Source: Fimbriimonas ginsengisoli Gsoil 348 (GTDB lineage Bacteria; Armatimonadota; Fimbriimonadia; Fimbriimonadales; Fimbriimonadaceae). Taken from it: a stretch of DNA of 55,018 nt. The position numbers were made by a program, and so were the translations under genes. The notes beneath the pieces are model-generated. The model did no database searches, was not told where the DNA came from, and saw nothing but the letters and a program-made list of their open reading frames with translations. The DNA is taken from NCBI GenBank assembly GCA_945881865.1, contig CAMCVK010000016.1:1-55018 (forward strand), in the 5' to 3' direction. The first letter of the stretch is position 1; every line of letters begins with the position of its first letter. Shown here piece by piece: positions 42,737 through 55,018 of this stretch.

Positions 42737-43702
42737 ATGGCCGCCGCCATAGAAACAACGAAGCTCACAAAAGGTTACAAATCACGAATTCACGGGACCG
42801 TCAACGTCGTTGACAAGCTCGATCTTCACGTCGAAGAAGGAGAGATCTTTGGATTCCTCGGGCCCAACGGAGCCGGAAAGACCACGACGATTAAGATGCT
42901 GCTGGGCATCATTTACCCGACCTCGGGCGAAGGCTATGTCCTTGGCAAAGAGATCGGTGACATGGATGTCCACCGTCTTATCAGCTACGTGCCGGAACGC
43001 CCGTACTACTACGAGTACATGACGGGTATGGAACTTCTGAAGTTCTACGGCTCGCTGTTTGGCATCACGGATGTTAAGAAGTTCGAAGCACTTCTCGAGA
43101 AGGTCAACCTTCACCGAGACGCTAGCAAGACGATTTCTCAGTATTCGAAAGGTATGCAGCAGCGCGTTGGCCTCGCCCAGAGCTTGCTCAACGATCCAAA
43201 GCTTCTTTTCCTCGACGAGCCAACCGGTGGTCTCGACCCGATCGCGCACCGCGAAATCCGGGACTTGATCCTGAGCTTCCGCGATGAAGGACGAACCGTT
43301 TTCATCTCGAGCCACGAGCTCAGCGAAGTCGAGTTGATCTGCGACCGCGTCGCCATTATCAACCGCGGCGTCATCGAGCGACAAGGCAAGCTCAGCGACC
43401 TGCTTAGCGGCGGTCGCGTCGAGATCTCGGCCGAAGGCGTCCCGACGCAGTTCATCAGCGATATGAAAATCAACGATGCAAACGTGCGGGCCATCCCAGG
43501 CGGCGTCCTTTTGGACATGCCGGAAGAAGCTGACATCACCGCCGTTATCGACGCCGTTCGTGCGCAGAAGGGCAAGCTGCTCAGCATCGTCCCGCGCAAA
43601 AAGCGACTCGAAGACCTGTTCGTCGAAACCGTTAGAGACAAGTCGGTGGCTCCAGCTGCCGCCAAGAAAACGCTCACCGTTGAGAGCGGAGACAAACCTT
43701 GA
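42737..43702 (+). CDS. ABC transporter ATP-binding protein (ABC-2 export type)
   Basis: 321 aa. Walker A GPNGAGKTTT, Q-loop replaced by the YVPERPYYYEYMTG variant common in this export subfamily, signature YSKGMQQRVGLAQ, Walker B LLFLDEPTGGLDP and H-loop SSHELSEVE, followed by a C-terminal regulatory extension of about 100 residues. Energises the ABC-2 permease encoded next, whose TTG start overlaps the stop (TTGA). Substrate unknown. Confidence 0.95.
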   Translation: MAAAIETTKLTKGYKSRIHGTVNVVDKLDLHVEEGEIFGFLGPNGAGKTTTIKMLLGIIYPTSGEGYVLGKEIGDMDVHRLISYVPERPYYYEYMTGMELLKFYGSLFGITDVKKFEALLEKVNLHRDASKTISQYSKGMQQRVGLAQSLLNDPKLLFLDEPTGGLDPIAHREIRDLILSFRDEGRTVFISSHELSEVELICDRVAIINRGVIERQGKLSDLLSGGRVEISAEGVPTQFISDMKINDANVRAIPGGVLLDMPEEADITAVIDAVRAQKGKLLSIVPRKKRLEDLFVETVRDKSVAPAAAKKTLTVESGDKP

Positions 43703-44484
43703 GACCGATTATTTCCATCGCGAGCACGACCCTCGGCGAAGCCATTCGCCGTAAGGTCCTTCTCATCATCTTGTTGATTGGGATTCTCTTCCTCGTCATC
43801 GCCCCTGGCCTTGGTGTACTTTCCGCCCGATCCGAAACGACGGTTCTGCGCGGAATGCTCCTCGGCGTCATCCAGCTCACCAGCGCGGTCATCGCGGTCG
43901 TTCTTACGGTCTACATGATTCCGAACGAGATCGAGCGACGCACCATCTACACGATCCTCAGCAAGCCGGTTCAACGCTGGCAGTTCCTGGTCGGCAAGTA
44001 TCTGGGCGCCGTCCTCTCGCTGGGACTAATGATGGTCCTCATGACGACGGTCATGGCCTTCACGTTCTATCTTCAGCAGAGAGACTTTACGGCCGTTCCT
44101 GAGCTTGTGAAGGCTCCGGTGATGTACTTCGTGCAGATGAGTCTGCTCGCAGCGCTCGCCGTGTTCTTCTCGACGTTCGTCGCACCGCTGGTGAACTTCT
44201 TCCTTTCGGGCGGAATGTACATCCTTGGTTCGTTGTTCAATCCGTTCTTCCAGACCCTGGACCAAAGCCCGACGACGCCGATTGGCGCGAAGGTCGCGGC
44301 CAAGCTGGTGAACGTGATTCTTCCGAACTTCGCAAACTACAACGTCCAGAACCCGATCATCAACCCCGGACAGTCGATTGCCAACGAAGGTGCCTACTAC
44401 TTCCAGGTCTCGATCTACGGCTTGTTCTACATCGGCATCCTGCTCGTCGGCGGAATTCTTGTCTTCGATCGCAGAGAGGTCTAA
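43699..44484 (+). CDS. ABC-2 type permease
   Basis: 261 aa, six hydrophobic helices: VLLIILLIGILFLVIAPGLG, LGVIQLTSAVIAVVLTVYMI, GAVLSLGLMMVLMTTVMAF, MSLLAALAVFFSTFVAPLV, a short FFLSGGMYILGSLF, and a final ISIYGLFYIGILLVGGILVF-like helix. The NEIERRTIYTILSKPVQRWQFLVGKY segment is the ABC-2 coupling region. Middle gene of the operon. Confidence 0.93.
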   Translation: MRPIISIASTTLGEAIRRKVLLIILLIGILFLVIAPGLGVLSARSETTVLRGMLLGVIQLTSAVIAVVLTVYMIPNEIERRTIYTILSKPVQRWQFLVGKYLGAVLSLGLMMVLMTTVMAFTFYLQQRDFTAVPELVKAPVMYFVQMSLLAALAVFFSTFVAPLVNFFLSGGMYILGSLFNPFFQTLDQSPTTPIGAKVAAKLVNVILPNFANYNVQNPIINPGQSIANEGAYYFQVSIYGLFYIGILLVGGILVFDRREV

Positions 44485-44487
44485 ACC

Positions 44488-45978
44488 ATGAAAACAGGCG
44501 TCAAAATCAGCAACGCGGTTGGCATCATGGCCGCCTGCTTTGTGGGGCAAGGCGTCCTTCAAGGTGGCATCGGCCCGCAGCCGTCTTCGACCGATTACGA
44601 GGTGAAGCGGGTCGTTATCACCAACGAGATCAGCCGGACGGTCAAGACCCTGAAGAAGGGAACTCCCGCTCCGACGTTCCAGGGAATCACGAGCCTCTGG
44701 CAGCGCGACTTCAGTGCGGGTAAGGGACAGATCTCCGGTGGACTTTCGCCCGACCAGATGCTCTTCGCCCTTGCAGGTTTCCGAGAGCTCGTCGCGGGAA
44801 TCCTATGGGTTCGCGCCGACTCGTTCTTCGACAGCGGCAACTACGATGCCATCTTGCCGATCATCCGCCTCGTGACGCTGCTTGACCCGAAGCAGATCGA
44901 CGTCTACGCCACCGGTATGTGGCATATTGGTTACAACTTCACGGACGAAGAGCAACGCTCCGACCGACGGTACATCCCGTCTGCGCTGGCGCTCGGCAAA
45001 GAAGGCACGAAGAACAATCCGGAAACATACGAGATGTTCTTCGAAACCGGCTGGATGTGGTACCACAAGATCGACGACGACTACTCGAACGCAGTGAAGT
45101 GGTTCGAGCAGGCGGCGGAGAAGCCGGACATGCTCGCGGCCCGAAAGAACCTTCTTTCGAACGCTTACGAGCGGAACGGCGAAGTGGATAAGTCGCTCGG
45201 CGTCCTCTACAAGCTGTACAACGACGCCGCAAAGGCATATGGTGCCGACAAAGAGTCCTACGGAAACCGGCAGAACCGAGACACCCTCGAGAACAAGCTC
45301 GACACCCATCTTGTGCGAATGACCCAGCGCGGTTGGTTCGCCAAGAAGGCGGGTCGCCCGCTCACCGGCTACGACGTGAACCCGCCCTACAACGTCGGTT
45401 TCAGCTGTAAGGTCACCGTCATCGATCCGTACGTGCTGCGGTTCGAAGGCACCTGGAACGTCAAGCCGGTTGGAACGCGAATCCGAGCCGTCATCAAGGA
45501 CGTCGACTTCCCGAACGCCGAGCCGGCGGGAATGAAGTGGGACGCCAGCAACGATGTCAATCTCGATCCACCCCGCGACAAGACGTTCATGCAAGAGCAG
45601 TTGTTCGTTAAGAACCAGCGGTTCAACCGAAAGGTCGACATGAGCAAGGACCCGACCATGTATCCGTTCGACTCGAAGGACTACATTGTCGAGTTCTACT
45701 ACAACCCGCGCTCGGCCCCGCCGCACATCCAGGACAAGTTCTCTTGGGACGGCGACGGTATGACGGATGCGAACTTCTTGGATACCAAGATTCGCGACGG
45801 CCAGCGGGTGATGTATACGTCCCTGCGGATCACCCGGGATCAGATCCTGCGGAAAGGCGAATGGCAGGACAAGACTCCGGTCATTCGAACGTCGAACTAT
45901 AAGGAAACCCTTGGCAAGAGCTACAACTCTTCCGATAAGGTGATCCTCGACCTTCCTTCGCTCCGTTCGGGCAACTAA
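44488..45978 (+). CDS. TPR-like protein linked to ABC-2 exporter
   Basis: 496 aa, three bases after the permease stop. N-terminal hydrophobic stretch (AVGIMAACFVGQGVLQGGIG) may be an anchor. The segment FRELVAGILWVRADSFFDSG then DAILPIIRLVTLLDPKQIDV and YATGMWHIGYNF is a helical-repeat block seen in ABC-associated TPR proteins of Armatimonadota and Planctomycetota; further TPR-like helices run to about residue 250 and the C-terminal half is beta-rich (VTVIDPYVLRFEGTWNVKP). Likely an accessory part of the exporter; this is inference from operon position. Confidence 0.75.
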   Translation: MKTGVKISNAVGIMAACFVGQGVLQGGIGPQPSSTDYEVKRVVITNEISRTVKTLKKGTPAPTFQGITSLWQRDFSAGKGQISGGLSPDQMLFALAGFRELVAGILWVRADSFFDSGNYDAILPIIRLVTLLDPKQIDVYATGMWHIGYNFTDEEQRSDRRYIPSALALGKEGTKNNPETYEMFFETGWMWYHKIDDDYSNAVKWFEQAAEKPDMLAARKNLLSNAYERNGEVDKSLGVLYKLYNDAAKAYGADKESYGNRQNRDTLENKLDTHLVRMTQRGWFAKKAGRPLTGYDVNPPYNVGFSCKVTVIDPYVLRFEGTWNVKPVGTRIRAVIKDVDFPNAEPAGMKWDASNDVNLDPPRDKTFMQEQLFVKNQRFNRKVDMSKDPTMYPFDSKDYIVEFYYNPRSAPPHIQDKFSWDGDGMTDANFLDTKIRDGQRVMYTSLRITRDQILRKGEWQDKTPVIRTSNYKETLGKSYNSSDKVILDLPSLRSGN

Positions 45979-45982
45979 CTTC

Positions 45983-46019
45983 CCCAGTCCGCCCAACCGA
46001 CCAGGTTGGGCGGACTGGG
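45983..46019 (+). terminator. terminator after the ABC operon, abutting the larA promoter
   Basis: Perfect 16-bp stem CCCAGTCCGCCCAACC/GGTTGGGCGGACTGGG with a 5-nt loop, followed by CTATTCTTC. The TATTCT of that tail doubles as the -10-like box of larA. Confidence 0.85.
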
Positions 46020-46032: not shown

Positions 46033-47316
46033 ATGCGCGTTGCGTTGGAGTACGGCCGTTCCGGCCTGATCGTCGATCTTCCCGATGACAACGTCGCGGC
46101 CGTGATGACCCTTCGCGAAGCCGAGGCGGCTGAACACCCGGCGGCCGCCGTGGCCCAAGCCCTTCGTGAACCCATCGGAACTCCGCCGTTGCGCGAGTTA
46201 GCCCAGGGGCGCAAAAACGCCTGCATCGTGGTTTGCGACATCACGCGGCCGGTCCCGAACCCAATCATCCTTCCCGAGATCCTCTCCGTGTTGGCGAGCG
46301 AGGGCATGGCCCCGTCGGAGGTTACGATTCTCATCGCCACCGGCACCCACCGCCCCAACGACGAAGCGGAGCTTTTGCAGATGCTGGGTGAGGAAGCCGC
46401 TTCCAACTGCAAAGTCGTCAACCACGTTTGCACGGACGACGCGGCGATGGAGAGCTTCGGCGACAGCCCGAACGGCGTGCCGATCTTCCTCAATCGCCAC
46501 TACACGCAGGCAGATTTTAAGATCACGGTCGGCATGATCGAGCCGCACTTCATGGCCGGTTACGCCGGCGGCCGGAAAATGGTGATGCCCGGAATCGCCG
46601 GGCTGGAGTCGGTGCAGGCCTGGCATTCGCCGAAGTTCTTGGAGCATCCGCGCGCAACGAACGGGGCGGTGGAAGGGAACCCAGTCCACGAGGAAGCCCT
46701 TTGGATCGCCAATCGCTGTCGGCCGGATTTCATCATCGACGTCGCGCTGGATAAGAATAAGAAAATCGCCGCCGTCTTTGCGGGCGACATGGAAGCCGCC
46801 TGGAACGCCGGCGTGGCGTTCGTCGCCAAGAACAACACGGTCGAAATCCCGGAGATGGTCGACGTCGCGATCACGACCTGCGGCGGCTATCCGCTGGACC
46901 TCACCTATTACCAAGCGGTGAAGGGAATGGTCGGCGTGGTCCCGATCGTCAAGCCGGGCGGAACGATCATCATTGCCGCCCAATGCGCCGAGGGCATCGG
47001 CAACGAACACTTTAGGGACGCCCTGTTCCGGGTTGGCGACATTTCGACTTGGCTTGAGCGGGCCGAAAGCGGCGAGTGGGAGCGAGTGCCCGATCAATGG
47101 CAGATTGAAGAACTCGCGAAGGCGGTCCGGAATCATCGAGTTCTGCTCAAGTGCGATGGGATTCCGCCCGAGGTTGTCGAACGGCTGTTCGTGACCCCAA
47201 TTTCCCGCATTGAGGACGCCGTGCGCGAGCTGGGGCCAAGCGCCCGGATCGCCGTCCTGCCGAAGGGCCCGTACGTCATTCCCGTTGTCACGCCGCCGCC
47301 GTCGAATACCCCGTGA
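46033..47316 (+). CDS. larA: LarA-family (DUF2088) nickel-pincer racemase/epimerase
   Basis: 427 aa from the ATG at 46033; a longer frame to 46006 would start inside the terminator stem. LarA catalyses 2-hydroxyacid racemisation with a nickel-pincer cofactor. Visible: CDITRPVPNPIILPEIL, ILIATGTHRPNDEAE, HFMAGYAGGRKMVMPGIAG with the lysine that carries the cofactor in LarA, and the C-terminal domain with ITTCGGYPLDLTYYQAVKGM. Other LarA homologues act on malate, phenyllactate or sugar acids, so the substrate is open. larB, larC and larE are not adjacent. Its stop overlaps the kinase start (GTGA). Confidence 0.88.
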   Translation: MRVALEYGRSGLIVDLPDDNVAAVMTLREAEAAEHPAAAVAQALREPIGTPPLRELAQGRKNACIVVCDITRPVPNPIILPEILSVLASEGMAPSEVTILIATGTHRPNDEAELLQMLGEEAASNCKVVNHVCTDDAAMESFGDSPNGVPIFLNRHYTQADFKITVGMIEPHFMAGYAGGRKMVMPGIAGLESVQAWHSPKFLEHPRATNGAVEGNPVHEEALWIANRCRPDFIIDVALDKNKKIAAVFAGDMEAAWNAGVAFVAKNNTVEIPEMVDVAITTCGGYPLDLTYYQAVKGMVGVVPIVKPGGTIIIAAQCAEGIGNEHFRDALFRVGDISTWLERAESGEWERVPDQWQIEELAKAVRNHRVLLKCDGIPPEVVERLFVTPISRIEDAVRELGPSARIAVLPKGPYVIPVVTPPPSNTP

Positions 47317-49199
47317 AGCCCATCAAGAAGATCGAGCTGCGTAGCCTACGCCTGCAGCTCTTGGGTTCACACCTTTCGTTGGTCGTGCTGGTGGGAATCG
47401 TGCTCAGCGGCGCCGTGCTCAGCTTCTTCTCGCTCTCTCGGTCGATCGACGGTGTTCTCGCGCAAAACTTTCCTACCGTGCTCGAGGCGCAATCGTTCGA
47501 AGCTGCCGTCGCGCGGCAACGACTCGCGTTCGAGCTTTACGCCGGGGGAGACGTCCCGCAAGCCCAGCCCCTGCTGGTGGAAGCGCTTCAAAGCGGCGAC
47601 CGAGCGATTCGGCGGCTGGAGAACTTGGTCACCGACCCGGCCGAGGTCACCCGTTTTCGGAATCTGCGTCAACTATGGGATCGGCAAACGGTCGATGCGG
47701 CGGCCCTCGCCAACGCCAACTCGCTTTCGCCCCAGCAGGGCCTCCCGGCGGTTTTGCGCAGCCGCGTGGCCCCGCGCATGAATGAGATGGTGAGCCTCGC
47801 TAGGGAGATCTCGGCGCTTAACGAGGTTTCCATCATCTCGGAGAATGAGCGGACCCGCCAAGAGTCGCTGCGGTTTTCGTACATCGGCATCGCGGTGACG
47901 ATCAGTGCGCTGGTGATCGCGCTCATCCTTGCCTTTCGCATGATGGACCTTTCGCTGAAACCGCTGGCGATCATCGCCAAAGCGGCGGAGGCGATCGGTA
48001 GCGGCGATCTGGACCAAAAGCTCGAGTTCCCGCGACGCGACGAAATCGGGGCATTGGCCGATAGCGTGAACGAGATGGCGTCCCGGTTGGCCGAGCTTCG
48101 AAGCGCGGCGAAACGCCGCTTGGAGCGCGCCCAGCGGATGTCGGACCTCGCCCTGAACTCGCTCTACGACCCCGTCATTGTCACCGATGCGCAGTTCCGC
48201 ATCGTTCACCTCAATCGGGCGGCGGTTCACGTGTTTGGCGAGCCGGAAACGCCGAAGATGCTCGTGAGCGAGCACATTCCGGACACCCGGATCTGGAAGG
48301 CGATCGACCACGCGATCGGCACGAAAGCCGCGATGGCGACCGAAGACGAGCAGAGTCAGATGACGCTGCGAGACGGCGGCGTCACCCGCATCTACCGGTT
48401 ACGGGCGACGCCGATGAACGACGAGGAAGGGAAGTGCCTTGGCGCGGTCGTTGTGATGGAAGACATCACCTACCTGCGGGACCTGGACCGAATGAAGACG
48501 GAGTTCATCGGCGTGGCCGCTCATGAGCTCCGCACCCCGGTTGCGTCGCTGCTGCTCTCGGCGCAATTGCTGGACGAAGGGGCGGCGGGCGACCTCACCG
48601 CCGCGCAAAAAGAGCTGGTTTCCGTGCAGCGGCAAGATCTGGAGCGGCTGGAAAAGCTGACCCACGATCTTCTGGACGTCACCAAATTGGAGGCGGGCAC
48701 GTTGGCACCGCGCCTGGAGTCGGTGCCCGTAAGCGAACTATTCCGAACGTTTGAGCGCACAATCCGGCCAACCGCCGCGGAACATTCCATCAATCTGGAA
48801 ATCCACGGTGCGGACGATGTCCCCGCCCTTTTCATCGACCGGGTACAGATCGGCCGCGTGCTGATCAATCTGGCCAACAACGCCATTCGCCACACGCCGC
48901 CGGGGGGACGCGTAACCGTTACGGCGCGGCGCGATGAGAATCAAGTATCTTTTGCCGTGGAAGACACGGGCGAAGGCATTCCGGCCGAATACCGCGAGCG
49001 GATATTCGAACGGTTTGTGCAAGTCCCCGGGGCAACCCAAGGCGGCGCGGGCCTAGGCCTAAGCATCGCAAAGAAGATCATTCACAATCATGGCGGCAAA
49101 ATGTCGGTAGTAAGTGAAGTAGGCAAAGGATCGGTGTTCGAATTCACCCTTCCGTTGCCCGGGCAATTACGAACGCCCACCCCAGGAGAAATCGCTTGA
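47313..49199 (+). CDS. membrane sensor histidine kinase (HAMP-PAS-HisKA-HATPase)
   Basis: 628 aa. TM1 about 20-42, extracytoplasmic helical sensor (about 43-188), TM2 about 189-209, HAMP (about 210-264), PAS (about 272-390; YDPVIVTDAQFRIVHLNRAA), HisKA with His404 in FIGVAAHELRTPV, and HATPase with N box NLANNAIRH (519-527), G1 DTGEGI and G2 GGAGLGL. It is unlike the KdpD kinase module, which lacks HAMP-PAS. The response regulator gene overlaps by four bases (TTGA), making a cognate pair. Confidence 0.93.
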   Translation: MKPIKKIELRSLRLQLLGSHLSLVVLVGIVLSGAVLSFFSLSRSIDGVLAQNFPTVLEAQSFEAAVARQRLAFELYAGGDVPQAQPLLVEALQSGDRAIRRLENLVTDPAEVTRFRNLRQLWDRQTVDAAALANANSLSPQQGLPAVLRSRVAPRMNEMVSLAREISALNEVSIISENERTRQESLRFSYIGIAVTISALVIALILAFRMMDLSLKPLAIIAKAAEAIGSGDLDQKLEFPRRDEIGALADSVNEMASRLAELRSAAKRRLERAQRMSDLALNSLYDPVIVTDAQFRIVHLNRAAVHVFGEPETPKMLVSEHIPDTRIWKAIDHAIGTKAAMATEDEQSQMTLRDGGVTRIYRLRATPMNDEEGKCLGAVVVMEDITYLRDLDRMKTEFIGVAAHELRTPVASLLLSAQLLDEGAAGDLTAAQKELVSVQRQDLERLEKLTHDLLDVTKLEAGTLAPRLESVPVSELFRTFERTIRPTAAEHSINLEIHGADDVPALFIDRVQIGRVLINLANNAIRHTPPGGRVTVTARRDENQVSFAVEDTGEGIPAEYRERIFERFVQVPGATQGGAGLGLSIAKKIIHNHGGKMSVVSEVGKGSVFEFTLPLPGQLRTPTPGEIA

Positions 49200-49996
49200 A
49201 CCACGAATCGCAACCCGCGCGAATTCTCATCATCGACGACGAGTCGAACATCCGCGCCATGATGCGCCTCGCGCTTGAGCACACCGGCTACCAAGTGCAG
49301 GTTGCGGCAGATGGTGTCGAAGGCCTACAGATTTTTGGTGCCGGGGCCGACTTCGATCTCGTGCTGCTGGATCAGCGCATGCCGACGATGCCCGGAATCG
49401 AAGTCCTTCGCGAGATCTTCGAGCGTCGCGCTGAAACCAAGGTGATCCTCATCACCGCTTTTGGCACCATGGATCTTGCCTTGGAGGCGATTCAGGCCGG
49501 GGCGCAAGACTTTTTGCGAAAGCCGTTCACGGCTGAAACCCTCCGAACCGCGGTTCAGTCGGCCCTCGAGCGCCCCGTAAGACGCGTCTCCGCGGTCCCG
49601 GTGAGCCTCATTTGCCGCGAGTTCACGAAATCGACGATCAACGGATTCTCATTTGAATTGGCCGACGGGCACGAAGACCATAAAGCCGGCGGCGATTTGA
49701 TGCTGGATTACGAGGTGCATCGTGGCGACCAAACAACGCGCGTCCGCGTGATGCTTCCGGGATACGTGCAGGAACTCGTTCGCGCTCATGCCGATACCGA
49801 AGTGTTGCCGGGCGGCGAGCGGTTTTGGCAGGCGATGTGCGAGGATGCGCTCTCAAGCGCGCTCTGGCAAGAGGCCGCGCTTCCGCCGAACAACCAGCTT
49901 AGAATCGACGACCTGACGCCTTCCACGAAAAAGTGGCTAGACTCGGTCCTCACAATCTCGCTCCAGGATGCTGGAGCGATGGAAACTCATGCCTGA
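49196..49996 (+). CDS. response regulator with unrecognised C-terminal domain
   Basis: 266 aa from TTG 49196. Receiver domain about 8-125 with acidic pair Asp14-Asp15, phosphoacceptor Asp59 (LLDQRMP), Thr87 and Lys109 (RKPF). The remaining 140 residues show no helix-turn-helix, GGDEF, sigma-54 or other output domain I know; there are strands (LMLDYEVHRGDQTTRVRVM) and a helical end (RFWQAMCEDALSSALWQEA). The output may be protein-protein signalling to the next two gene products. Overlaps the KdpD-like gene by 8 bp. Confidence 0.88.
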   Translation: MNHESQPARILIIDDESNIRAMMRLALEHTGYQVQVAADGVEGLQIFGAGADFDLVLLDQRMPTMPGIEVLREIFERRAETKVILITAFGTMDLALEAIQAGAQDFLRKPFTAETLRTAVQSALERPVRRVSAVPVSLICREFTKSTINGFSFELADGHEDHKAGGDLMLDYEVHRGDQTTRVRVMLPGYVQELVRAHADTEVLPGGERFWQAMCEDALSSALWQEAALPPNNQLRIDDLTPSTKKWLDSVLTISLQDAGAMETHA

Positions 49997-51095
49997 CAAA
50001 GCTCCCTTCGGCGTCATACACAAAATATTCCTCGGCTACGCGCCCGGGGTCGGCAAGACCTTCGCTCTCCTCGATGAGGCACAGCGCCGCCGCGCGCGAG
50101 GTCAAGAAGTCGTCATCGGCGCGCTCGACGCCTACGGCCGGAAACCCACCGAGGAAGTTGCCGCCGGAATCGAAGTGATTCCCGTGCTAGAAGGCACCGT
50201 GGATGGCAAGACGTACCGCGACTTGGACGTAGAGCAGATTCTCTCCCGCAAGCCGGACCTCGTCATCGTGGATGATGTCGCCCACTCCAATGCTCCGGGC
50301 GGGCCAAGGGCCAAGCGTTGGCAGGATATTGAAGTGCTGCTGAACGCCGGCATCAACGTTCTTTCGACCCTAAACGTTTATCACCTGGAATCGTTAAACG
50401 ATCAGATCGCCGACATCACCGGTGTCCGCATCCTTGAAACGGTGCCGGACCACATCTTGCATGAGGCAGATGAGGTCGAAATCATCGACCTAACGCCGAC
50501 CGCCCTTCTGAACCGAATCAAGCGCGGCGACGTGGACCCGGGCGAAGAGGTTGGCTCCTTCATTACGAAGATTTCAAACGAGGCGACGTTGAGTGCGTTG
50601 CGTGAGATCGCCTTGCGGGAAGCCGCCGGCCGAGTGGACGAAGATCTCGAAGAGTATCGAAAAGAAAAGCGGATTGAGAAGCCATGGGCGACTCGCGACC
50701 GCGTCATGATCTGCATCAGCCCGACCCGCTCCGCCATGCGACTGATTCGGCGCGGCTGGCGAATGGGCCAACGCATGAAGGCAGAGGTTTTTGCCGTGCA
50801 CGTGAAGGACCACGGCCACGAGAGCGAGGCTGCGAAGAAAGTTTTGGCCGACGACTTCGCTTTGGCGGCACGGCTTGGAATTGAGACCGTCATGCTGGAA
50901 GGCCCGCTCGGCCAAACACTGGTGAAGTTCGCCAAGGAGCGAAACGTGACGGCGGTCATCCTTGGTCACCCGGATCGGTCTCGACTTCAAGAGGTGCTCC
51001 GTCCCTCGATTCTTTCTGAACTGGCGCGCGACCTCCGCACGGTGGATATCATCGTCGTTTCAACCGAAACCACGCCGCCGGTTGATACGCATTAA
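49989..51095 (+). CDS. stand-alone KdpD N-terminal domain plus USP domain
   Basis: 368 aa from ATG 49989. KdpD N-terminal part with Walker A GYAPGVGKT (16-24), the KdpD block DDVAHSNAPGGPRAKRWQDI and TLNVYHLESLNDQIADITGV, followed by a universal-stress domain (about 225-360) with VMICISPTRSAMRLIRRG and VILGHPDRSRLQEVLRPSI. The four transmembrane helices, GAF and kinase domains of full KdpD are absent and the gene stops cleanly, so it is a genuine short form rather than a fragment. In KdpD this region senses K+ stress and, in Staphylococcus, binds c-di-AMP through the USP domain. Situated between a two-component pair and a K+ transporter. Confidence 0.9.
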   Translation: MPDKAPFGVIHKIFLGYAPGVGKTFALLDEAQRRRARGQEVVIGALDAYGRKPTEEVAAGIEVIPVLEGTVDGKTYRDLDVEQILSRKPDLVIVDDVAHSNAPGGPRAKRWQDIEVLLNAGINVLSTLNVYHLESLNDQIADITGVRILETVPDHILHEADEVEIIDLTPTALLNRIKRGDVDPGEEVGSFITKISNEATLSALREIALREAAGRVDEDLEEYRKEKRIEKPWATRDRVMICISPTRSAMRLIRRGWRMGQRMKAEVFAVHVKDHGHESEAAKKVLADDFALAARLGIETVMLEGPLGQTLVKFAKERNVTAVILGHPDRSRLQEVLRPSILSELARDLRTVDIIVVSTETTPPVDTH

Positions 51096-51101
51096 TCGAG
51101 C

Positions 51102-52973
51102 ATGAGCGACTCCCAACCTCCAGGCTTTTTTTCGCGTTTACGTCGGACCCTGATGGGTGCGCCGATCGCAAGTTCGAAGGCGCACCACGAGAAGTTGTCC
51201 CCGGGCGTCGGCCTGGCGGTTTTTGCCTCTGACTCTCTGAGCTCGGTTGCCTACGCGACCGAGGCCATTTTGGCGGTCTTGGTCCTGCTAGGTGCCCAAT
51301 ATCTTGGGCTCCAGATTCAGATTTCGCTGGCGATCATCGCCCTCATTGCGATCATTGCCTTCAGCTACCGGCAAACGATTCGCGCCTATCCAATGGGCGG
51401 CGGAAGCTACGTCGTTGCTTCCGATAATCTTGGGCCCAAAGTCGGGGTGATTGCCGGCTCAGCGCTACTCATCGACTACGTGCTCACGGTGGCCGTCTCG
51501 GTAGCGGCCGGTGTTGCGGCCATCACTTCGGCCCTGCCCCAGCTTCATCCGTATCTGATTCAACTCTGCGTGCTGTTCATCGCCTTGCTGGCATGGGCGA
51601 ACCTTCGGGGCATGAAGGAGTCGGGCGCCATTTTCGCGTTTCCCACCTACGGCTTCGTCGTGGTCATGTACATCATGATTGCGGTTGGACTATACAAAGT
51701 TTGGGGCACGCCTCCCGCGACGCCGATCGTGCTCACCGAGCCAGGCAAGATGGGGTCCGAAGCGAACTTCCCGATCTGGTTCGTGCTGGCCCGAGCGTTT
51801 GCCGCCGGATGCACTGCCCTTACCGGAATTGAGGCCGTGAGTGACGGAACCCAATCCTTCCGGAAACCGGAAGTCAAGAACGCCTCAAACACGCTCGTCC
51901 GCATGGCGGTGATCCTCAGCACGATGTTCATCGGGATGGGCTACATCATCTGGCACATGCCGCAGCTTGGGTTGTATTCGGCAAAGAACCCGGCGTTTCG
52001 AACCGTTTCCTCCCAAGTGGCCACGTTTGTTTTTGGCAACGGATCGCGGATGTTCTTCGCGGTGCAAATCTTCACCGCCCTGATTCTGCTTCTCGCCGCC
52101 AACACCGCGTTTGCCGACTTTCCGCGCGTTTGTAGCTTCCTGGCGCGCGACAACTTTCTACCGCGGTACATGGCTCGCCTTGGGGACCGGCTTGTATTCC
52201 ACAACGGCATCATCTTGTTGGCCGTTTCCGCGGTGGCACTGGTCGTCATTTTCCACGGCGAGCTTGATACGCTTCTTCCGCTTTACGCCGTCGGCGTTTT
52301 CACCGCGTTCACGCTGTCCCAGTCCGGCATGGTTGCCCACTGGCTCAAGAGCAAGGAAGCAGGCTGGCGCACCAGCGTGGCGATCAACGGGACCGGTGCC
52401 TTCCTCTGTTTCATCGTCCTTCTCATCATTCTCATCACAAAATTTAAGGAAGGCGCCTGGATCATCTCGATCATCCTGCCGGTTCTCTACTTTGTGCTGA
52501 TGGGGATTCACCGCCGGTACGACTCGATCGCCAAGCAATTGGAGCAATCGTTCACGGAGCCGGAGCCGTTCTCCGGTCACGTCGTTTTGCTCCTGGTCCC
52601 GCGTGTGAATCGGGGCATCTTGGACGCGCTGCAATACGCTCAGAACCTTAAGGGCGACGTTCAGGCCGTTCACGTGACGATCAATGAGAAGACCCTGCCC
52701 GACTTGCAGCGGCAGTGGCAGAAGTATGGCGACGAGGTTCCGTTGGTGGTCCTGCAATCCCCTTATCGGTCGTTCATTGAGCCGGTCCTCGGCTACGTGG
52801 ATGAACTTCGCGAGCAAGACCCCAACACGCTCATCACCGTCATCGTGTCCGAGGCCGTAAGCACGAAGTGGTACCAGCGGCTACTCTCCGAGAACGTTGC
52901 CCTCCAACTGCGGCAAGCGTTGGCCAAGCGGGCAAACGTGGTGGTTGCAAATCCTCGCTACTTCCTTAACTAG
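51102..52973 (+). CDS. kimA: KimA-type potassium/proton symporter (APC superfamily)
   Basis: 623 aa, 12 predicted transmembrane helices and a cytoplasmic C-terminal domain (about 470-620). Strong family matches: LAVFASDSLSSVAYATEAIL, SYRQTIRAYPMGGGSYVVAS, DYVLTVAVSVAAG, GCTALTGIEAVSDGTQSFRKP, LAANTAFADFPRVCSFLARD and LYAVGVFTAFTLSQSGMVAHW, the last being in the K+/H+ symporter KimA (YdaO) of Bacillus. The C-terminal domain reads VLLLVPRVNRGILDALQYA then AVHVTINEK, USP-like, as in KimA, where c-di-AMP inhibits transport. Starts 6 bp after the KdpD-like gene. Confidence 0.9.
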   Translation: MSDSQPPGFFSRLRRTLMGAPIASSKAHHEKLSPGVGLAVFASDSLSSVAYATEAILAVLVLLGAQYLGLQIQISLAIIALIAIIAFSYRQTIRAYPMGGGSYVVASDNLGPKVGVIAGSALLIDYVLTVAVSVAAGVAAITSALPQLHPYLIQLCVLFIALLAWANLRGMKESGAIFAFPTYGFVVVMYIMIAVGLYKVWGTPPATPIVLTEPGKMGSEANFPIWFVLARAFAAGCTALTGIEAVSDGTQSFRKPEVKNASNTLVRMAVILSTMFIGMGYIIWHMPQLGLYSAKNPAFRTVSSQVATFVFGNGSRMFFAVQIFTALILLLAANTAFADFPRVCSFLARDNFLPRYMARLGDRLVFHNGIILLAVSAVALVVIFHGELDTLLPLYAVGVFTAFTLSQSGMVAHWLKSKEAGWRTSVAINGTGAFLCFIVLLIILITKFKEGAWIISIILPVLYFVLMGIHRRYDSIAKQLEQSFTEPEPFSGHVVLLLVPRVNRGILDALQYAQNLKGDVQAVHVTINEKTLPDLQRQWQKYGDEVPLVVLQSPYRSFIEPVLGYVDELREQDPNTLITVIVSEAVSTKWYQRLLSENVALQLRQALAKRANVVVANPRYFLN

Positions 52974-53017: not shown

Positions 53018-55018
53018 ATGAGTCAGCGCGTGCCTTCGCAGTGGAATCGAGAGCTTGCTCCCGCCGATCCGGTTGACCTGTTGGTCTACGCTTCCAATCT
53101 GCTCGGCTCAGACGTTCGCATCACCAACTTTGGTGGCGGCAACACCAGCTCGAAACTTTCCATGACCGACCCGCTGACCGGCGATCCGGCGGAAGTGCTT
53201 TGGGTGAAGGCTTCGGGCGGCGATCTAGGCAGTGCGAAGCGCGCCGGATTTGCTTCGCTCTATCAAGACAAGGTTCTTGCGCTGGAGGCGCGCTACCGAG
53301 AGACGGGAATGCCGGAAGACGAGGTCGTTCCACTGTATCCGCAGTGCGCCTTTAACCTAAACCTGGCTGCGCCATCCATCGACACGCCGTTGCACGCCTA
53401 CGTGCCGTTCGCGGCGGTGAGCCACATGCACAGCGACGCGGTGATCTCGATTGCCGCGGCCGAGAACGGCGAAGAACTCACGCGCGAGGTGTACGGCGAC
53501 GACGTGTTCTGGCTTCCGTGGAAGCGACCGGGGTTTGAGCTCGGCCTCATGCTTCGGGACGGCATCCTGGCTAACCCGAAAGCGCGCGGCGCAATGATGG
53601 GCTCGCACGGCTTCATCTGCTGGACGAACGACTGGGAGTCGGCCTACGAACTCACGCTGGAACTCATCAACAAGGCGGTCGACTTCATCGAGTCGAAGCC
53701 GAACGGCGCGAAACTCGCGCCCCATCCGAGCTTGCGCCTGGAGAACTCGGAGGCGCTGCTGATTGACTTGCTGCCGCGTTTGCGCGGCAAGGTCGCGTTC
53801 AACGGCCAAAGATTGGTCGCCCACGTCGATACGGGAGATGACGTACTAGCGTTCTTCGAGCGACCGGATTTCGAGCACTTGGTGAGCCTTGGCACGAGCT
53901 GCCCGGACCACTTCCTCCGCACGAAGATTCGACCGCTGGTGCTTTCGCCGACGGCCGACGACGCCGAGATCGATGCGAGACTGGCCGAGTTCCGCGAGGC
54001 GTATGCCGCCTACTACAACCGCTGCAAGCGGGACGATTCGCCGGCAATGCGGAACCCCAACCCGAGCGTCGTACTGCTCCCGGGCGTCGGCATGGTGAGC
54101 TTCAACAAGAACGCCCGCGAGGCCCGAGTGACCGGCGAGTTCTACCGAAACGCCATCGAAGTGATGCGCGGCGCGCAGGCGATCGGCAAGTATGCCGCCC
54201 TGCCGGAACAGGAAGCCTTCAACATCGAGTATTGGCAGCTGGAAGAAGCGAAGCTGAAGCGACAGCCGCCCGAGAAGGAGCTTGCCAGACGCGTTGTGTT
54301 GCTCATCGGTGCCGGACCCGGAATCGGAGCCGCCGTCGCCGAGCGACTGCTCGCCCAAGATGCCGCGCTGGTGCTTGCGGACATCAATCTGGACCTCGCG
54401 ATCGAGCTCCGGGACCGGTTGCGCGGGACTTACGGGGCCGACAATGTCGAAGCGATTTCGCTGAACATCACCGACCGCGAATCCGTTTGCCGCGCGATGG
54501 AGTTCGCGACGCTGCGCTACGGTGGCCTCGACGTGTTGGTGAATATCGCGGCCGTGTTCTTTGCGCCGGACCAAAGCGGTCGCTTGGACGACGCGAAGTG
54601 GATGAAGACCTACGAGATCAACCTGGTTGGCTCCTACATCGTGGCCGACGAAGCCGCGCGCGTGATGAAGCTCCAGAAGACGCCGGGAAGCATCGTGCTG
54701 GTCAGCAGTGCCAACGCGGTGGTCGCCAAGAAGGGAAGCGTGGCCTACGACACCAGCAAGGCGGCGATGAACCACCTGGTACACGAGCTCGCCGTCGAAT
54801 ACGCCCCTCACATCCGGGTCAATGCCGTCGCCCCGGCGACAGTCGTATCCGGTTCGCAGATGTTTCCGCGCGACCGAGTTTTGGCTTCGCTGGCGAAGTA
54901 CGACATCGCGTTCGACGAGTCGATGGACGACGAAACTTTGCGGGCCCGCCTTGCCGAGTTCTACGCGCAGCGCACGCTGCTGAAGCAAGCAGTTACGCCG
55001 GCCAAGGTGGCGGACGCG
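53018..55018 (+). CDS. bifunctional class II aldolase / short-chain dehydrogenase (RhaD/RhaE-like), 3' end outside window
   Basis: 667 codons are visible; family members are about 690-700 aa, so little is missing. N-terminal aldolase/adducin domain (about 1-400) with NFGGGNTSSK, VKASGGDLG, the zinc ligands of SHMHSDAV and GSHGFICW. C-terminal short-chain dehydrogenase (about 425-end) with VVLLIGAGPGIGAAVAERL, NIAAVFF, SSANAVV and catalytic YDTSK. Such fusions cleave L-rhamnulose-1-phosphate and oxidise the resulting L-lactaldehyde; related ones act on other deoxy sugars. Oxidation of lactaldehyde would give lactate, which may link it to the LarA-type racemase nearby (inference). Confidence 0.92.
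   Translation, partial: MSQRVPSQWNRELAPADPVDLLVYASNLLGSDVRITNFGGGNTSSKLSMTDPLTGDPAEVLWVKASGGDLGSAKRAGFASLYQDKVLALEARYRETGMPEDEVVPLYPQCAFNLNLAAPSIDTPLHAYVPFAAVSHMHSDAVISIAAAENGEELTREVYGDDVFWLPWKRPGFELGLMLRDGILANPKARGAMMGSHGFICWTNDWESAYELTLELINKAVDFIESKPNGAKLAPHPSLRLENSEALLIDLLPRLRGKVAFNGQRLVAHVDTGDDVLAFFERPDFEHLVSLGTSCPDHFLRTKIRPLVLSPTADDAEIDARLAEFREAYAAYYNRCKRDDSPAMRNPNPSVVLLPGVGMVSFNKNAREARVTGEFYRNAIEVMRGAQAIGKYAALPEQEAFNIEYWQLEEAKLKRQPPEKELARRVVLLIGAGPGIGAAVAERLLAQDAALVLADINLDLAIELRDRLRGTYGADNVEAISLNITDRESVCRAMEFATLRYGGLDVLVNIAAVFFAPDQSGRLDDAKWMKTYEINLVGSYIVADEAARVMKLQKTPGSIVLVSSANAVVAKKGSVAYDTSKAAMNHLVHELAVEYAPHIRVNAVAPATVVSGSQMFPRDRVLASLAKYDIAFDESMDDETLRARLAEFYAQRTLLKQAVTPAKVADA

What the first reader, a model, noticed from the sequence alone, without database searches (positions are those of the whole stretch)
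46033..52973. Potassium-uptake operon combining LarA, a two-component pair, a kinase-less KdpD sensor domain and a KimA-type transporter
Five genes overlap or nearly touch (4-, 4- and 8-base overlaps, then a 6-bp gap), so they are one transcript. The KdpD N-terminal/USP protein lacks any kinase, while a separate HAMP-PAS kinase and a regulator without DNA-binding domain sit directly before it. In known systems the KdpD USP region and KimA both respond to c-di-AMP. The arrangement suggests a post-translational circuit in which the kinase/regulator pair acts on the KdpD-like ATPase or on KimA rather than on transcription. The lead gene, a LarA-type racemase, has no known link to potassium.
Basis: partly seen in the sequence, partly recalled or inferred. 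Interest (0 to 1): 0.72.

Follow-up and report, generated by a model that had tools for sequence, protein, structure and literature searches.

The report
Split-KdpD module beside potassium importer KimA
A bacterium of the little-studied phylum Armatimonadota carries, next to a potassium importer, a conserved three-gene control module (a sensor kinase, a response regulator with a new kind of output domain, and the front half of the potassium sensor KdpD), which probably adjusts the importer directly rather than through gene expression.

Summary
The five genes and their overlaps are exactly as described, but the unit is cut in the wrong places. LarA is not part of it: relatives either lack LarA or keep it elsewhere. 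The real unit is HK-RR-KdpDN. It recurs in Armatimonadota: the RR's unique C-terminal domain occurs in 53 of 291 genomes, and KdpDN follows directly in 47. At least 25 loci also carry a K+ importer in the same run: KdpABC in 12, KimA in 15 (two have both), with KimA in several different positions. So the link to K+ uptake is solid. 'Kinase-less' is misleading: the KdpD domain belongs to a family shown to be an atypical serine kinase that inhibits KdpB, c-di-AMP-stimulated in the short Deinococcus form. The window copy keeps Walker A and Arg190, but its catalytic Glu110 is Asp. The RR output domain is strongly acidic and matches no Pfam domain, so DNA binding is unlikely. The genome has a diadenylate cyclase and a c-di-AMP riboswitch, but known c-di-AMP pockets are only partly conserved in KdpDN and KimA. 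Best reading: a split-KdpD system in which phospho-RR and c-di-AMP act on KdpDN, which controls the co-encoded importer post-translationally. KimA as target is inferred.

The parts
47313..49199 (+). HK: membrane histidine kinase (2 TM, HAMP, PAS, HisKA with HELRTP box, HATPase)
   Evidence: Pfam; TM peaks and H-box; conserved first gene of the core in relatives
49196..49996 (+). RR: response regulator, 266 aa, TTG start
   Evidence: Receiver PF00072; D14, D15, D59, K109 identical in 50 of 50 family members
49586..49993 (+). RR C-terminal output domain (b-b-b-a-a-b-a), acidic, no Pfam match
   Evidence: present in 53 of 291 genomes of the phylum
49989..51095 (+). KdpDN: KdpD domain + USP domain, no histidine kinase
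   Evidence: PF02702 251 bits, PF00582 36 bits; follows RR directly in 47 of 53 genomes
50019..50636 (+). KdpD domain: Walker A GYAPGVGKT kept, Arg190 kept, Walker B Asp-Asp instead of Asp-Glu
50697..51032 (+). USP domain: C-x-S-x-T-x2-A at the c-di-AMP motif site
   Evidence: motif from PMC8214093
51102..52973 (+). KimA: KUP-family K+/H+ importer
   Evidence: 6s3k E 8e-130; K+ site intact
46033..47316 (+). LarA-type racemase: flanking gene in the same run, not part of the module
   Evidence: PDB 9eid E 2e-133; in relatives absent or elsewhere in the genome
45983..46019 (+). Perfect 16-bp hairpin before LarA, terminator-like with a weak U tract

Best explanation
HK-RR-KdpDN is a split form of the KdpD/KdpE potassium control system that serves whichever K+ importer is co-encoded (KdpABC or KimA). 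The membrane HK senses an outside signal and phosphorylates Asp59 of the RR (residues shown, reaction inferred). The RR's acidic C-terminal domain does not bind DNA but contacts KdpDN (inferred from fixed pairing). KdpDN, whose USP domain may also read c-di-AMP, then inhibits the importer when K+ is high, by serine phosphorylation through its Walker A/B site, as its relatives do to KdpB. In the window the importer is KimA. Shown: the anatomy, the conserved core, its repeated link to K+ importers, the use of c-di-AMP in this genome. Inferred: RR-KdpDN contact, kinase activity of this copy, and KimA as target.
For: RR C-domain in 53 of 291 Armatimonadota genomes, 27 genera; KdpDN directly downstream in 47 genomes. 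Same-run importer in at least 25 genomes: Kdp 12, KimA 15, both in G100 and G101, with KimA after KdpDN, after an MpsC gene, between HK and RR, before HK, or directly after RR, i.e. several separate recruitments or rearrangements. The KdpD N-domain is a proven atypical Ser kinase for KdpB and the short Deinococcus form is c-di-AMP-stimulated (PMC11018627). All 13 Kdp-linked KdpDN copies have the Walker B Glu. G013 has module + KimA, an intact Walker site and no KdpA at 98% completeness, so KdpB cannot be its target there. RR phosphorylation residues conserved in 50/50. C-domain mean pI 4.7, net charge -10, against pI 9.2 for the same genome's KdpE DNA-binding half. Diadenylate cyclase in 98 of 101 genomes incl. 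own; own c-di-AMP riboswitch at 85 bits. Natural HK-RR fusion in G011.
Against: The window's Walker B is Asp-Asp; E110A kills E. coli KdpD kinase activity and E110D is untested, so this copy may be inactive. A clade of 8 genomes keeps RR-KdpDN with Walker A GKA and Walker B DN, no adjacent HK and no KimA, so the pair has some role without kinase activity. Four genomes have the RR family without an adjacent KdpDN (G090, G126, G128, G132), and G090 has no KdpD domain at all. c-di-AMP motif only partly met in KdpDN and KimA. No Ser/Thr in KimA is specific to module-linked copies. Tree-corrected tests of motif against context have too few independent events to be significant.
Confidence: 0.45

Rival explanations
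1. KdpDN is the detached sensory half of the HK: it binds ATP and c-di-AMP and tunes the HK's kinase/phosphatase balance or scaffolds HK and RR, as the N-terminal half of full-length KdpD does, without acting on the importer.
For: HK, RR and KdpDN are adjacent in most genomes; Walker A Lys and Arg190 (ATP binding) are universal while the catalytic Glu varies in one family; split KdpD systems with a separate sensor kinase are known in Deinococcus (PMC5716572).
Against: 8 genomes keep RR-KdpDN with no adjacent HK; the catalytic Glu is kept in all Kdp-linked copies, which a mere sensor would not need.
Confidence: 0.25
2. The system is transcriptional: the RR C-domain is an unrecognised DNA- or polymerase-binding domain that switches the importer operon on at low K+, as the D. 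radiodurans RR does.
For: Most RRs are transcription factors (general knowledge); the D. radiodurans RR of a split kdp system binds the kdp promoter (PMC5716572); the C-domain can occur without KdpDN (G090).
Against: No helix-turn-helix or other Pfam match in 28 members above chance, predicted b-b-b-a-a-b-a fold with no confident PDB match, strongly acidic.
Confidence: 0.2
3. The neighbourhood is accidental.
For: LarA and the RhaEW-type gene show that unrelated genes can sit in this run.
Against: The core recurs in 47 genomes and meets K+ importers in at least 25.
Confidence: 0.02

Closest known systems
Split kdp system of Deinococcus radiodurans (KdpD-N, separate sensor kinase and RR; PMC5716572)
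   Same: KdpD N-terminal half as a separate protein beside a K+ importer, with a separate HK and RR
   Different: There the RR is a DNA-binding protein encoded in an opposite operon and the importer is Kdp; here the RR has a new acidic output domain, sits between HK and KdpDN, and the importer can be KimA
Short KdpD/Usp serine kinase of Deinococcus geothermalis (PMC11018627)
   Same: Same two domains, Walker A G-x5-GKT and Arg190 kept
   Different: Known target is KdpB; the window copy has Asp for the catalytic Glu and lies beside KimA
Bacillus subtilis KimA (PDB 6s3k; PMC10284832)
   Same: Full-length homologue, K+ site and Arg337 identical
   Different: His579-Asn580-Gln581-Ser582 of the c-di-AMP pocket replaced by Ser-Glu-Asn-Val; no KdpD-like or two-component partner was found described for it
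NCBIfam NF038185 KdpD-like non-kinase potassium sensor
   Same: Best NCBIfam match, whole length (331 bits)
   Different: Below the curated cut-off of 550 bits

Membership tests
KimA (KUP-type K+ importer) | Full-length similarity to B. subtilis KimA incl. cytosolic domain | tested here: met
   6s3k, E 8e-130, residues 11-620
KimA (KUP-type K+ importer) | K+-site residues D36, Y43, S125, T230, Y377 | tested here: met
   all identical
KimA inhibited by c-di-AMP | Pocket residues Arg337 and His579-Asn580-Gln581-Ser582 | tested here: inconclusive
   Arg337 kept, other four changed; the same changes occur in module-less genomes
KdpD-domain atypical serine kinase | Walker A G-x5-GKT | tested here: met
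   GYAPGVGKT
KdpD-domain atypical serine kinase | Adenine pair Trp39/Arg190 | tested here: inconclusive
   Arg190 kept, position 39 is Phe; Phe/Tyr also in other KdpDs
KdpD-domain atypical serine kinase | Walker B Asp109-Glu110 | tested here: not met
   Asp-Asp in the window; Asp-Glu in its sister copies G013, G014, G007
KdpD-domain atypical serine kinase | Phosphorylates a transporter serine | not testable with these tools
   needs purified proteins
Firmicute-type c-di-AMP-binding USP domain | (A/G/C)xSxSx2N plus Tyr/Phe at 271 | tested here: not met
   Cys242 and Ser244 kept, Thr246 conservative, Ala249, His271; two Deinococcus KdpDNs lack the motif too although a Deinococcus one responds to c-di-AMP, so absence of binding does not follow
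KdpE-type response regulator | DNA-binding output domain | tested here: inconclusive
   no Pfam match, acidic, but a new DNA-binding fold cannot be excluded
NF038185 KdpD_non_kinase | Curated cut-off 550 bits | tested here: not met
   331 bits
DUF1488 | Fold and sequence of PF07369 | tested here: inconclusive
   VIA-align Z 6.7, rmsd 3.7, to 2gpi over 85 residues; no Pfam match; profile comparison with one DUF1488 sequence negative

The most novel reading that the evidence does not exclude
A two-component system with a non-DNA-binding regulator switches a stand-alone KdpD serine kinase, which also reads c-di-AMP, and this kinase phosphorylates and closes a KUP-family importer (KimA): two-component, serine-kinase and second-messenger signalling joined on one transporter.
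Probability: 0.22. Interest if true: 0.78.

Novelty: new variant of a known kind. Interest (0 to 1): 0.55.

Why it matters
It widens KdpD from a regulator of the Kdp pump to a regulator module that can be attached to another importer, and it offers a response regulator whose output is probably a protein, not a promoter. KimA is known to be controlled by c-di-AMP; a kinase acting on it would be a new layer of K+ control. The set of natural variants (Kdp-linked, KimA-linked, both, and a clade with a decayed kinase site) makes the question directly testable.

Tried and rejected
(1) LarA as a functional part: no fetched relative has it beside the module; G006, G007 and G012 have it elsewhere. (2) 'KimA lost its own c-di-AMP pocket because KdpDN took over': the changed pocket (x-E-N-V) also occurs in KimA of genomes without the module, so rejected. 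(3) Loss of the Walker B Glu caused by absence of Kdp: suggestive in raw counts (13/13 Kdp-linked with Glu, 16/36 others) but confined to one family and not significant on the tree. (4) A KimA serine special to module-linked copies: none found. (5) c-di-AMP riboswitch before the operon: no Rfam match in the window except a tRNA. (6) RR C-domain in PDB sequences, Pfam or plasmids: nothing convincing; Foldseek no match at E <= 0.001. (8) The contig ends at the window end, so the RhaEW-type gene could not be completed.

Full report
What is there. The five genes are present exactly as described: LarA 46033-47316, HK 47313-49199, RR 49196-49996, KdpDN 49989-51095, KimA 51102-52973, with 4-, 4- and 8-base overlaps and a 6-bp gap. 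The permease is a real KimA: it matches B. subtilis KimA (6s3k) end to end at E 8e-130 and keeps all five compared K+-site residues. The window is a whole contig of an Armatimonadota genome; the nearest named relatives are Fimbriimonadaceae and Chthonomonadales.

Where the unit begins and ends. LarA does not belong. Of 20 relatives searched, G006, G007 and G012 and two more distant genomes have a LarA relative; in the three close ones it lies on a different contig or far from the module, and no fetched neighbourhood of the module contains LarA. A perfect 16-bp hairpin (-36.9 kcal/mol, z -8.2) lies between the preceding gene and LarA. Behind KimA, after 44 bp, a gene for a class II aldolase/short-chain dehydrogenase of the RhaEW type runs off the contig; in G007 the same gene follows KdpDN directly. 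LarA and this gene may both belong to lactate/rhamnose metabolism, but that is a guess.

The conserved core. The RR with its C-terminal domain occurs in all 20 genomes of the genus and in 53 of 291 genomes of the phylum. A scan of 84,980 species with receiver-based patterns gave full-length relatives only in Armatimonadota (or in unnamed MAGs that group with them), and none is on plasmids. In 47 of the 53 genomes KdpDN follows the RR directly on the same strand, and the HK precedes it in most; in G011 HK and RR are one 869-residue protein. In at least 25 of the 53 a K+ importer is in the same gene run: KdpABC before the HK in 12, KimA in 15, both in G100 and G101 (KdpA and KdpC confirmed by Pfam, and KdpB is a P-type ATPase by Pfam lying between them). 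KimA sits after KdpDN, behind an MpsC gene after KdpDN, between HK and RR, before the HK, or after the RR, so the link arose or was rearranged several times. This is the strongest result: HK-RR-KdpDN is a K+-uptake control module that accepts two unrelated importers.

KdpDN is not kinase-less in kind. Silberberg et al. 2024 (PMC11018627) showed that the KdpD domain is an atypical serine kinase that phosphorylates Ser162 of KdpB and shuts the pump at high K+, that it needs Walker A, Asp109, Glu110 and the Trp39/Arg190 pair, and that the short KdpD/Usp form of Deinococcus geothermalis is stimulated by c-di-AMP. In the Armatimonadota set the Walker A Gly-Lys and Arg190 are kept in all copies; the Thr of Walker A is Thr or Ser except for Ala in one clade. 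Walker B is Asp-Glu in all 13 Kdp-linked copies, Asp-Glu or Asp-Asp in KimA-linked copies, and Asp-Asn in the clade with GKA. The window copy has Asp-Asp; its sister copies in G013, G014 and G007 have Asp-Glu. Whether Asp can replace Glu110 has not been tested. G013 is useful: module, KimA and an intact site, no KdpA, 98% complete, so the target there cannot be KdpB.

A natural experiment with a caution. Eight genomes of the genus have RR-KdpDN but no adjacent HK, no KimA, and a decayed Walker site (GKA, Asp-Asn); five of them also lack KdpA. They form one clade, so this is one event. In them the RR phosphorylation residues are intact, as in all 50 members aligned, so RR and KdpDN seem to have a joint role that outlives the kinase site. 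Tree-corrected tests of motif against context are not significant because there are too few independent changes.

The regulator's output. The C-terminal domain (about 135 residues) has no convincing Pfam match in 28 members and no significant PDB sequence match. AlphaFold gives b-b-b-a-a-b-a with mean pLDDT 80. Foldseek finds nothing at E <= 0.001; the second look gives DUF1488 (2gpi) at Z 6.7 over 85 residues, best by more than 2 but still in the range of chance, and a profile comparison with one DUF1488 sequence is negative. It is strongly acidic (mean pI 4.7, mean charge -10), against pI 9.2 for the DNA-binding half of the KdpE-like protein in the same genome. DNA binding is therefore unlikely but not excluded.

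c-di-AMP. The genome has a diadenylate cyclase and a c-di-AMP riboswitch at 85 bits, so the messenger is in use. The Firmicute USP motif (PMC8214093) is partly met in KdpDN: Cys242 and Ser244 kept, Thr at 246, Ala at 249, His at 271. Two Deinococcus KdpDNs lack it altogether, although a Deinococcus short KdpD responds to c-di-AMP, so the motif is not decisive outside Firmicutes. In KimA (pocket residues from PMC10284832) Arg337 is kept and residues 579-582 are changed. The same change is found in KimA of genomes without the module, so I dropped the idea that KdpDN took over c-di-AMP sensing from KimA.

How it most likely works. HK phosphorylates the RR; the RR acts on KdpDN; KdpDN, perhaps with c-di-AMP, restrains the importer by serine phosphorylation. 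Anatomy, pairing and the link to importers are shown; contact, activity and target are inferred. The nearest rival is that KdpDN is the detached sensory half of the HK; the second is a transcriptional RR as in D. radiodurans (PMC5716572). The only paper in the library that holds the terms KimA, serine kinase, phosphorylation and potassium uptake together is PMC11018627, which names KimA once.

Verdict.

Noticed in passing
45983-46019: Perfect 16-bp stem hairpin (-36.9 kcal/mol) ending 13 nt before the LarA start, with a weak U tract; unclear where LarA transcription starts.
   Followed up: partly
53018-55018: RhaEW-type class II aldolase/short-chain dehydrogenase ORF 44 bp after KimA, cut by the contig end; the same gene follows KdpDN in G007 (L130).
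   Followed up: partly
L132, L136-L141, L024: Clade of eight genomes with RR-KdpDN but no adjacent HK and a decayed Walker site (GKA, DN); in G002 and G003 a 403-415 aa membrane protein without Pfam match sits in place of the HK.
   Followed up: partly
L133 9778-10152; L114 7131-7499; L037-L039: MpsC/DUF2294 (PF10057) proteins recur beside the module and beside kdpABC; possible further part.
   Followed up: no
L134 (G090): Two HK-RR copies of this family in a genome with no KdpD domain and three tandem KimA genes on another contig.
   Followed up: no
L262-L281, L174-L202: Two KimA subfamilies in the phylum, with x-E-N-V or H-N-N-A at the c-di-AMP pocket positions 579-582.
   Followed up: partly
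G000:C1:136394-136538: c-di-AMP riboswitch (RF00379) in the window's own genome; the gene it controls was not looked at.
   Followed up: no
42737-45978: ABC transporter ATPase, permease and a TPR-like protein upstream, same strand, overlapping or nearly touching each other.
   Followed up: no
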